Origin: Flavobacteriales bacterium
Lineage (GTDB): Bacteria; Bacteroidota; Bacteroidia; CAIKAF01
NCBI GenBank assembly: GCA_025055575.1
Contig: JANWWP010000081.1
Location: 1-43,491 of the forward strand
DNA length: 43,491 nt
Direction of reading: 5' to 3'
Both the position numbers and the translations under genes were made by a program. Under the pieces are notes generated by a model. It made no database searches, was not told where the DNA came from, and worked only from the letters and a program-made list of their open reading frames with translations. Positions within the stretch are counted from its first letter, which is position 1. Each line of letters begins with the position of its first letter. Below, piece after piece: positions 29,534-32,960 of the stretch.

Positions 29534-29541
29534 TACTTTTG
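29534..29541 (+). promoter_or_regulatory. -7 promoter box before typA (TACTTTTG)
   Basis: Exact TAnnTTTG match, identical to the box before the Wzz-like gene. Only 8 bases separate it from the ATG at 29550, so the message would begin at or next to the start codon. No -33 TTG was found. Confidence 0.5.
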
Positions 29542-29549
29542 TGCTGCCT

Positions 29550-31364
29550 ATGACACGCCCTTTGCGCAATGTGGCCATCATCGCCCATGTGGACCATGGA
29601 AAAACAACCCTGGTGGACAAAATCATGCATCAATGTCGGCTTTTTCGCGACAATCAGCACACCGGAGAACTCATTCTGGATCATAATGAACTGGAGAGGG
29701 AAAGAGGCATCACAATTCTGGCCAAAAATATTTCCGTCACATATAAAGGAATAAAAATCAATATTATAGACACCCCCGGCCACGCCGATTTTGGAGGCGA
29801 AGTGGAGCGTGTGTTGAACATGGCCGACGGCGCCCTGCTCCTTGTGGACGCCTTTGAGGGTCCCATGCCTCAGACGCGGTATGTGCTTCAGAAAGCGTTG
29901 GACCTTGGAAAAAAAATCATTTTGGTCGTAAATAAAATTGACAAGGAAAACTGCCGGCCTTTGGAAGTTCAGGAAGCCGTGTTCGAGCTAATGTTTCACT
30001 TAGGGGCGTCTGAAGAGCAATTGGATTTCCCCACGCTTTTTGGCTCCTCCAAGCTGGGCTGGATGTCCACAGACCCTACGCGTCCGGAAGCCGACATGAC
30101 GCCCCTGCTGGATACGCTGATCGCTACTGTTCCTCCACCCTCGGATAATCCGGGTAGCCTTCAGATGCAGATCACCTCCTTGGATTATTCTTCTTTCCTT
30201 GGCCGCATTGCGATAGGCAGGGTCCATCGTGGCACAGCGCGGCCCGGCATGGAAGTCCTGATCATGAAACCCGACGGCAGTTCGCAGCGGCAGCGCATTA
30301 AAGAACTGTTTGTATTCGAAGGCCTGGAAAAACAAAAAACCGATGCAGCGCCCTGCGGCGAAATCTGCGCAGTCACTGGCCTGGAGTCCTTTGATATTGG
30401 AGACACTATAGCCGATCCATTGCATCCGGAAGCGCTCCCGGCCATCCAAATAGACGAACCCACCATGAGCATGGTGTTCACCATCAACAATTCTCCTTTT
30501 TTCGGAAGGGATGGACGCTTCGTCACTTCACGCCATTTGAGAGAAAGGCTGTTGAAAGAAACCGAAAAAAATCTGGCCCTGCGGGTGGAAGAAGGCCAAA
30601 GCGCGGACAGTTTTGTGGTGTATGGCCGGGGCGTCCTGCATTTGTCTATTTTAGTGGAGACCATGCGCCGCGAGGGGTATGAACTTCAGGTGGGCAAACC
30701 CCGCGTGCTCCTGCGCGACACGCCGGAAGGCCGCATGGAACCGATAGAGTGGCTGGTGGTGGACAGTCCGGAGTATTGCGCCGGAAAAATTATTGAATCT
30801 GTCAGCCGCCGGAAAGGCGAACTTAAAAATATGGAAACGCGGGGCGATATGCAACGGATGGAATTCGAGATTCCGGCACGGGGTCTGATAGGCCTGCGCA
30901 CAGAGATCATCAATCTCTCCTCCGGTGAGGCCCTGATGGGGCATCGTTTCTTACGTTACGATGCCTGGCGCGGACCTATTCCGGGCCGCATCAATGGTTC
31001 CCTTATTTCAGGGGAAACCGGTGTGGCAGCTGCCTATTCTTTGGACCGGCTGCAGGATCGAGGGAAGTTTTTTATACACCCCGGAGAGGAAGTTTACGAA
31101 GGTCAAGTAATAGGCGAACACACCCGCGACAACGATCTGGTGGTGAATGTGACCCTTGGTAAAAAGCTAACCAACATGCGCGCCAGCGGCGCCGATGAGA
31201 AGATGCGCATTGCGCCGCCGGTTAAGTTCACTTTAGAAGAGGCCATGGAATACATCAACGAGGACGAATATGTGGAAATTACACCAGCGGCGCTAAGACT
31301 TCGTAAAATTTTCCTCAATGAAAATGACCGAAAGCGCATGGCACAAAAAGCTGTCATTTCCTAA
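29550..31364 (+). CDS. typA: Ribosome-binding translational GTPase TypA/BipA
   Basis: GTPase that binds the 70S ribosome and assists large-subunit assembly and stress or low-temperature growth. The ATG at 29550 ([19 protein letters not shown]) gives 604 residues, the usual size. GTP-binding motifs: [10 protein letters not shown] (G1), [11 protein letters not shown] (G2), [11 protein letters not shown] (G3) and NKIDKE (G4). Beta-barrel and EF-G-like domains III and V follow ([20 protein letters not shown]), and the BipA-specific C-terminal domain ends [34 protein letters not shown]-like sequence. An in-frame GTG at 29541 would fall within the promoter box. The sterol-reductase-like gene follows after six bases, so the two are probably co-transcribed. 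Confidence 0.97.
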
Positions 31365-31370
31365 TAATAC

Positions 31371-32960
31371 ATGAGAAAAAAAGAAGATTTCAACAGCCGC
31401 TTCAATTTACTGGAATACATTCTCACCTACCATCGCGGTCTTTTTACCACCGTTTTTCTTCTTCCTATTTCCACAGTGGTGCGCCTTTTCCGTTGGACCA
31501 AGGACCGCCTGACACTGTGGCTGTTTTCTGCGCCTCAGCTTCATGCCAAAAGGGTGGAAAAAGTGCAACAGGCCCTCCACAACTGGATTGCCGAAGGATG
31601 CCCTTCCCGGCTTACCACGTCCCGTTCCGGCTGGCAAGCCATGAGCGAATTGGTGCCCGTGTACAAAAAGACCCATCGCGCCATACCCATGAAAAATATG
31701 CGGGACATTCTGCACCTGGATACCCAACGCAACACGGTTACCGTGGAGCCCTATGTAAATATGGGTCAGATTTCCAGGTATCTCATCCCGCGGGGCTACA
31801 CCCTGCCAGTCTTGCCTGAGCTCGACGAGCTCACAGTGGGTGGCCTCATCAATGGTTTTGGGGTAGAATCGTCCAGCCATCGCTTCGGCCTTTTTCAATA
31901 CACCGTAGAAAGCCTGGATATTATCACCGCGGATGGAACATTGCACCATTGTTCCGCCCTTGAGAATCCGGACCTATTTTACAGCATTCCATGGAGCCAT
32001 GGAACCTTGGGATTTCTGGTGGCCGCTGAACTAAAGGTGATACCCTGCCAGCCCTATGTTCGTTTGGAATATTGGCCCATACGCGGGCTTATGGAAATTG
32101 TTCAGGAATTTGAAAAAGCCAGCCGATCCGAGGATTTCCAATTTGTGGAAATGTTGATGTACGGACCGGAAGAAGCCGTGCTCATGACCGGTCGCATGGC
32201 CGGTCAACCCTCAGAAGATGGCCGTGTAAACGCCATTGGAAGATTCTGGAAACCTTGGTTTTACAAACATGCGAAAAGCTATCTGGATTCGAACGCGGCT
32301 GGCGTGGAATATATTCCCCTGCGCCACTATTACCACCGCCATACACGCAGCCTTTTTTGGGAAATGGAGGAAATTATTCCATTCGGCAACCACCCCGTGT
32401 TTCGTGCGCTTCTGGGTTGGGCTGTTCCTCCGCCCATCTCGCTACTGAAATATTTTGAAACCGACACCACCAAACGCCTTCGCGAACAGCACCATGTGGT
32501 GCAGGATATGCTGATGCCGGTATTCCATCTGGAAAAATCCCTGCGCTATTTTGAAGAAAATTATCAGCTCTATCCGCTTTGGGTGTGCCCTATGAGCGTC
32601 TATTCCTATCCGGACGGCCGAGGGTTTCTAAGGCCTTTCCGCCGTCCCGATGGTACGGAAGATCCTCTCTATGTGGACATTGGAGCCTACGGCACCCCGC
32701 GCAAGCCCGGATTTCATGCCATGGAAGCGCTGCGCGCCCTGGAACAGTTTGTTCTCGCACATAAAGGCTATCAGGCAATGTATGCCCGCACTTTGCTCAG
32801 CCGCGATGATTTCCGAACCATGTTCCACCACTCCCACTACGACCGCTTGCGGCAGGAATTGCCCTACACCCGCCAGGCCTTTGATGAAGTGTACGATAAA
32901 CTGGGAGGACAAAGCCGTCTTTCCCCTGCAGATTTTAAAAAAGTACGACCCACATCATGA
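31371..32960 (+). CDS. FAD-dependent delta24-sterol reductase (DHCR24/Seladin-1) homologue
   Basis: A 529-residue flavoprotein resembling animal DHCR24 along its whole length. DHCR24 reduces the side-chain double bond of sterols with NADPH. Residues 23-40 form a hydrophobic N-terminal segment (LFTTVFLLPISTVVRLF), likely a membrane anchor, at the same place as in DHCR24. The FAD domain spans about 75-225, with VEPYVNMGQISRYL, LPVLPELDELTVGGLI and GFGVESSSHRFGLFQ. The C-terminal half carries DHCR24-specific GVEYIPLRHYYHRHTRSLFW (311-330) and the IIPFGNHPVF and VPPPISLLK segments. Family level is secure. Whether the substrate is a sterol, another polyprenyl lipid or something else is unknown, since no squalene or sterol gene is in the window. 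It follows typA by six bases. Confidence 0.9.
   Translation: MRKKEDFNSRFNLLEYILTYHRGLFTTVFLLPISTVVRLFRWTKDRLTLWLFSAPQLHAKRVEKVQQALHNWIAEGCPSRLTTSRSGWQAMSELVPVYKKTHRAIPMKNMRDILHLDTQRNTVTVEPYVNMGQISRYLIPRGYTLPVLPELDELTVGGLINGFGVESSSHRFGLFQYTVESLDIITADGTLHHCSALENPDLFYSIPWSHGTLGFLVAAELKVIPCQPYVRLEYWPIRGLMEIVQEFEKASRSEDFQFVEMLMYGPEEAVLMTGRMAGQPSEDGRVNAIGRFWKPWFYKHAKSYLDSNAAGVEYIPLRHYYHRHTRSLFWEMEEIIPFGNHPVFRALLGWAVPPPISLLKYFETDTTKRLREQHHVVQDMLMPVFHLEKSLRYFEENYQLYPLWVCPMSVYSYPDGRGFLRPFRRPDGTEDPLYVDIGAYGTPRKPGFHAMEALRALEQFVLAHKGYQAMYARTLLSRDDFRTMFHHSHYDRLRQELPYTRQAFDEVYDKLGGQSRLSPADFKKVRPTS

What the first reader, a model, noticed from the sequence alone, without database searches (positions are those of the whole stretch)
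31371..32960. Full-length animal-type DHCR24 homologue in a Bacteroidota genome
The 529-residue protein matches animal DHCR24 from its membrane segment (23-40) through the FAD domain to the C-terminal signature GVEYIPLRHYYHRHTRSLFW. That part is specific to DHCR24 rather than to flavoproteins in general. Sterol synthesis is rare in bacteria and no other sterol gene is in the window. Either this organism makes or modifies sterols, or the enzyme reduces a different isoprenoid side chain (for example a menaquinone or carotenoid tail). The gene sits six bases behind typA, as if expressed constitutively. Family recognition is from sequence and known DHCR24 conservation; the alternative substrate is inference.
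Basis: partly seen in the sequence, partly recalled or inferred. Interest (0 to 1): 0.8.

Follow-up and report, generated by a model that had tools for sequence, protein, structure and literature searches.

The report
Sterol side-chain reductase in a Bacteroidota bacterium
The gene is a bacterial version of DHCR24, the enzyme that saturates the sterol side chain, and the same genome also carries the enzymes that make squalene, oxidise it and close it into a sterol ring, so this bacterium probably makes a simple saturated sterol of its own.

Summary
In detail: 31371-32960 (+) encodes a 529-aa, full-length DHCR24-type protein. It is a bacterial member of that group: the best relatives outside its own family are Methylococcus-type MAG proteins (57%), whose genes sit beside sdmB/sdmA-type sterol C-4 demethylation genes. 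On another contig, the genome has an oxidosqualene cyclase with cycloartenol-synthase residues (Y381/H449/I453), 55 bp from and divergent to a single ORF fusing squalene synthase with squalene monooxygenase. In 395 Bacteroidia genomes the reductase occurs in 9, all among the 11 with the cyclase, and in none of 384 without it, which disfavours a menaquinone or carotenoid substrate. No P450 (so no CYP51) and no SdmA-like Rieske protein was found. Best reading: a short pathway, farnesyl diphosphate > squalene > oxidosqualene > cycloartenol-type sterol > 24,25-dihydro product (e.g. cycloartanol). DHCR24-type reductases in sterol-making bacteria and cycloartenol in a Bacteroidota (Fluviicola) were already known. 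The combination in this family and the squalene synthase-monooxygenase fusion are additions. Activity and product are inferred, not measured.

The parts
31371..32960 (+). DHCR24-type FAD-dependent sterol delta-24 reductase, 529 aa (P0001)
31437..31490 (+). predicted N-terminal hydrophobic membrane segment, residues 23-40
   Evidence: hydropathy maximum; long helix 22-50 in the model
31680..31955 (+). FAD_binding_4 domain match, residues 104-195
32301..32360 (+). GVEYIPLRHYYHRHTRSLFW signature, residues 311-330, conserved in the sterol-type group and different in the BfaA-like outgroup
29541..31364 (+). typA, upstream neighbour with a 6-bp gap; linkage not seen in relatives; not part of the pathway

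Best explanation
The gene encodes a membrane-anchored, FAD-dependent sterol C-24 reductase of the DHCR24 family that works at the end of a short sterol pathway in this Bacteroidota bacterium. Proposed steps: (1) a fused squalene synthase-squalene monooxygenase turns two farnesyl diphosphates into squalene and then 2,3-oxidosqualene; (2) a cycloartenol-synthase-type oxidosqualene cyclase closes the rings; (3) the window protein, using FAD reduced by NAD(P)H, adds hydrogen across the C24=C25 side-chain double bond, giving a 24,25-dihydro C30 sterol such as cycloartanol. Shown by sequence: presence, completeness and family of the enzymes, and co-occurrence. Inferred: enzyme activity, cyclase product, electron donor, order of steps and final sterol.
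For: Full-length relatives. OSC on contig C68: TIGR01787 above cut-off, best PDB match human lanosterol synthase (656 bits), catalytic DCTSE, Y381/H449/I453. SQS-SQMO ORF: TIGR01559 above cut-off, PF08491 1e-71, motifs DTIED, DYLED and GDALNMRHP. Co-occurrence with OSC: 9/11 versus 0/384 in class, 9/10 versus 0/6 in family. Methylococcus-type homologues are adjacent to sdmB/sdmA-type genes in three MAGs. In methanotrophs, presence of an ERG4/DHCR24-type homologue tracks C-24 saturation of sterols (PMC4919349). A 'canonical' C-24 reductase is assigned to cholesterol-making E. salina (PMC12004948). I453 marks cycloartenol in bacteria, and Fluviicola makes cycloartenol (PMC4919349). No P450 in the genome, with controls ringing.
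Against: The reductase is not clustered with the OSC/SQS-SQMO genes (different contig) and has no conserved neighbours in its family. The co-occurrence is clustered in one family, so independent events are few. In the papers read I found no bacterial DHCR24 homologue tested as an isolated enzyme. One family member (G012) has OSC without this gene.
Confidence: 0.8

Rival explanations
1. The enzyme saturates another isoprenoid chain, such as menaquinone or a carotenoid, and sterols are unrelated.
For: It is an FAD-fold protein, and the fold is shared with many flavoproteins acting on other substrates.
Against: Menaquinone and carotenoids are widespread in Bacteroidota (general knowledge), yet the gene is absent from all 384 sampled Bacteroidia lacking OSC. 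The nearest non-family relatives sit beside sterol demethylation genes.
Confidence: 0.06
2. It is a BfaA/TmsA-like reductase of 10-methylene fatty acids.
For: The nearest bacterial outgroup by sequence (25% identity) includes a Nonomuraea protein encoded next to a CMAS methyltransferase, as for bfaAB (PMC5660069).
Against: The window protein is separated from that outgroup by a 100/100 branch and keeps the sterol-group signature. Whether the genome has a CMAS-type methyltransferase was not searched.
Confidence: 0.03
3. It acts on sterols taken up from other organisms rather than on its own.
For: The Parachlamydiaceae homologue, which groups with recalled human DHCR24, could be such a case.
Against: This genome encodes its own route from farnesyl diphosphate to a cyclised sterol.
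Confidence: 0.05
4. The cyclase makes a pentacyclic product without a side chain (arborane-like, as recalled for Eudoraea), and the reductase acts on a minor tetracyclic product.
For: A bacterial OSC product cannot be read with certainty from three residues; the Eudoraea case is recalled, not looked up.
Against: Y381/H449/I453 match the cycloartenol type, and I453 correlated fully with cycloartenol in tested bacteria (PMC4919349).
Confidence: 0.06

Closest known systems
Eukaryotic DHCR24 (24-dehydrocholesterol reductase)
   Same: Full-length similarity, N-terminal membrane segment, FAD domain, HYYHRHTRS-type signature; 47.5% identity to human as recalled from memory (a lead only).
   Different: Closer to bacterial homologues than to recalled human; predicted substrate is a C30 4,4,14-trimethyl sterol rather than desmosterol.
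Methylococcales sterol C-24 reductase homologues (M. capsulatus type)
   Same: 57% identity to Methylococcus-type MAG proteins; that group is known to make sterols (PMC4919349).
   Different: There the gene is adjacent to sdmB/sdmA-type genes, in a group reported to have CYP51 (ERG11) homologues (PMC4919349); here no P450, no SdmA-like protein and no clustering.
Canonical C-24 reductase of Enhygromyxa salina
   Same: Described as the canonical (DHCR24-type) reductase (PMC12004948).
   Different: Acts last in full cholesterol synthesis; not compared by sequence here.
Bsr, the GGR-family bacterial sterol C-24 reductase
   Same: Same reaction (PMC12004948).
   Different: A different protein family (geranylgeranyl reductase).
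Fluviicola taffensis cycloartenol pathway
   Same: Bacteroidota with squalene epoxidase and CAS-type OSC (PMC4919349).
   Different: Reported to make only cycloartenol, with no downstream genes; here a C-24 reductase is added and SQS-SQMO are fused.
BfaA/TmsA 10-methylene fatty acid reductase
   Same: Nearest bacterial outgroup found, similar in size and domain.
   Different: 25% identity, different signature, CMAS neighbour.

Membership tests
DHCR24 family (sterol delta-24 reductase) | FAD_binding_4 domain | tested here: met
   PF01565 57 bits, cut-off 26.4
DHCR24 family (sterol delta-24 reductase) | Full-length similarity including the part after the FAD domain, distinct from generic FAD oxidases | tested here: met
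   501-543 aa relatives align over their length with 119 invariant columns; generic FAD proteins in PDB/NCBIfam match about residues 100-265 only
DHCR24 family (sterol delta-24 reductase) | Phylogenetic placement with eukaryotic DHCR24 | tested here: inconclusive
   Groups with sterol-type relatives against the BfaA-like outgroup at 100/100, but the only eukaryotic row was recalled from memory
DHCR24 family (sterol delta-24 reductase) | N-terminal membrane segment | tested here: met
   Hydrophobic residues 23-40, helix 22-50 in the model at modest confidence
DHCR24 family (sterol delta-24 reductase) | A substrate with a C24 double bond available in the cell | tested here: inconclusive
   OSC, SQS and SQMO genes are in the genome; that they make such a substrate is inferred
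DHCR24 family (sterol delta-24 reductase) | Reduces sterol C24=C25 with NADPH/FAD | not testable with these tools
   needs an enzyme assay
Cycloartenol synthase (cyclase on C68) | Catalytic DCTxE and Y381/H449/I453 | tested here: met
Cycloartenol synthase (cyclase on C68) | Passes the NCBIfam 2,3-oxidosqualene cyclase cut-off (TIGR03463) | tested here: not met
   696 bits against cut-off 851; it passes the broader squalene/oxidosqualene cyclase model TIGR01787 (656 against 322.7), so it is called an oxidosqualene cyclase of CAS type, not a TIGR03463 member
Cycloartenol synthase (cyclase on C68) | Makes cycloartenol | not testable with these tools
   needs expression and GC-MS
BfaA/TmsA fatty acid reductase | Branches with BfaA-type proteins and shares their signature | tested here: not met
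   Separated at 100/100 and with a different signature

The most novel reading that the evidence does not exclude
A Bacteroidota lineage runs a minimal membrane-sterol pathway with no demethylation: a single fused squalene synthase-squalene monooxygenase, one cycloartenol-type cyclase and one DHCR24-type reductase, ending in a saturated C30 sterol (cycloartanol type). The squalene synthase-monooxygenase fusion would be a bifunctional enzyme not described in the papers I found.
Probability: 0.55. Interest if true: 0.55.

Novelty: new member of a known kind. Interest (0 to 1): 0.45.

Why it matters
Sterols in sediments are read mainly as traces of eukaryotes. A bacterial family predicted to make 24,25-saturated C30 sterols without demethylation would add a bacterial source, and would be a simple system for asking what a minimal sterol does in a bacterial membrane and why the side chain alone is saturated.

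Tried and rejected
Viral contigs were scanned for DHCR24 relatives: none. PHROGs: none. PDB by sequence: no chain named DHCR24 among the hits, only generic FAD proteins; by fold: DprE1-like fold, TM-score about 0.55-0.59, which fits the superfamily and says nothing on substrate. Plasmid search gave only about 25% BfaA-like or generic proteins. A first reading that the SQS-SQMO fusion also exists in genus g2 was dropped: in G002 and G004 the two genes are in one frame but separated by a stop codon. ERG4/ERG24 (PF01222) gave no match, but its controls were silent, so absence is not shown. Rieske proteins in the genome gave at most a 53-residue local match to the Methylococcus SdmA-type protein. 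L074 was read in a wrong frame in the first alignment and was left out of the trees.

Full report
Observation. The ORF at 31371-32960 (+) is intact, 529 aa, and starts 6 bp after typA. Pfam sees only the FAD domain (residues 104-195); NCBIfam and PDB hits are generic FAD oxidases matching about residues 100-265. Relatives found by whole-genome search are full length and conserved throughout, with 119 invariant columns in 12 sequences.

What it is. Identities to the window protein are 77% (same genus), 54-62% (same family), 57% (three gammaproteobacterial/Methylococcus MAGs) and 41% (a Parachlamydiaceae MAG). The outgroup proteins (about 25%) include one encoded next to a CMAS methyltransferase, matching the described bfaAB pair that makes 10-methyl stearic acid (PMC5660069). 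In maximum-likelihood trees the window protein lies with the sterol-type sequences, separated from the outgroup at 100/100. The deeper order inside the group is not resolved, and holding the eight family proteins together as one clade is borderline (p-AU 0.0499). The predicted structure (mean pLDDT 77, pTM 0.80) has a DprE1-type FAD-oxidase fold.

The rest of the pathway. At the start of contig C68, a 729-aa oxidosqualene cyclase (L013:2733-4922 +) lies 55 bp from, and divergent to, an 847-aa ORF (L013:134-2677 -) that joins a squalene synthase resembling the human enzyme (TIGR01559 above cut-off; PDB 1ezf, 280 bits) to a squalene monooxygenase (PF08491, 1e-71; PDB 6c6n). Catalytic motifs are present in all three. 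The only squalene/hopene-cyclase family protein found in the genome is this one, so no hopene cyclase was found. The fusion is seen in both genomes of the genus (847 and 851 aa, no stop); in genus g2 (G002, G004) the two genes are in frame but split by a stop, and elsewhere in the family they are separate.

Which sterol. Against human lanosterol synthase the cyclase has T381Y, C449H and V453I, the cycloartenol pattern; I453 tracked cycloartenol in every bacterium tested by Wei and colleagues (PMC4919349), and the Bacteroidota species F. taffensis makes cycloartenol only. No P450 was found in the genome while half of the control genomes rang, so CYP51-type C-14 demethylation is unlikely. Rieske proteins are present but not SdmA-like over their length. 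ERG24 absence is not shown, and ERG25 and EBP were not searched. The simplest product is a 24,25-dihydro C30 sterol.

Link between reductase and sterols. In 395 Bacteroidia genomes the reductase is in 9, the cyclase in 11, and all 9 are among the 11 (Fisher p 9e-17). By genus it is 4 of 6 versus 0 of 190 (p 2.5e-7). These p-values overstate independence because the carriers sit in one family. Within that family the six genomes of genus g3 lack both, and one genome (G012) has the cyclase without the reductase. In the three Methylococcus-type loci the homologue lies next to sdmB- and sdmA-type genes. Wei and colleagues tie the presence of an ERG4/DHCR24-type homologue to C-24 saturation in methanotrophs.

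Context. The reductase is on a different contig from the other sterol genes, and its neighbours differ among relatives (an M16-type peptidase, secretion-tail proteins, a DUF2851 protein), so the typA linkage is not informative about function.

Known and new. DHCR24-type reductases in sterol-making bacteria and bacterial cycloartenol are known; a GGR-type alternative (Bsr) was described in 2025 (PMC12004948). New here are a Bacteroidota family combining a cycloartenol-type cyclase with a C-24 reductase, with no P450 in this genome, and the fused squalene synthase-monooxygenase, for which the paper searches gave no precedent (open-access papers only).

Noticed in passing
L013:134-2677 (-), G000:C68; also L035 in G015: Squalene synthase and squalene monooxygenase fused in one ORF (847 and 851 aa) in both genomes of the genus; in G002 and G004 the same two genes are in frame but split by one stop codon.
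   Followed up: partly
L015:9986-11494: A Parachlamydiaceae MAG encodes a DHCR24-type protein that groups with recalled human DHCR24 (52% identity), possibly taken from a eukaryote and used on host sterols.
   Followed up: no
L016, L017, L018: In three Methylococcus-type MAGs the DHCR24 homologue is divergently adjacent to sdmB- and sdmA-type genes, a compact sterol-modification cluster.
   Followed up: partly
L013:5634-7261 (-): A short-chain dehydrogenase and a PhyH-type dioxygenase lie near the cyclase; apart from a 33% SDR match in one genome they were not found beside the cyclase in relatives.
   Followed up: partly
G317:C2:1165510-1167717 (L051): A Bacteroidia genome outside the family has a CAS-type cyclase (44% identity, Y381/H449/I453) but no DHCR24 homologue.
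   Followed up: no
G013:C8:55607-56920 (L052): The only P450 among the ten cyclase-bearing family genomes; whether it acts on sterols is unknown.
   Followed up: no
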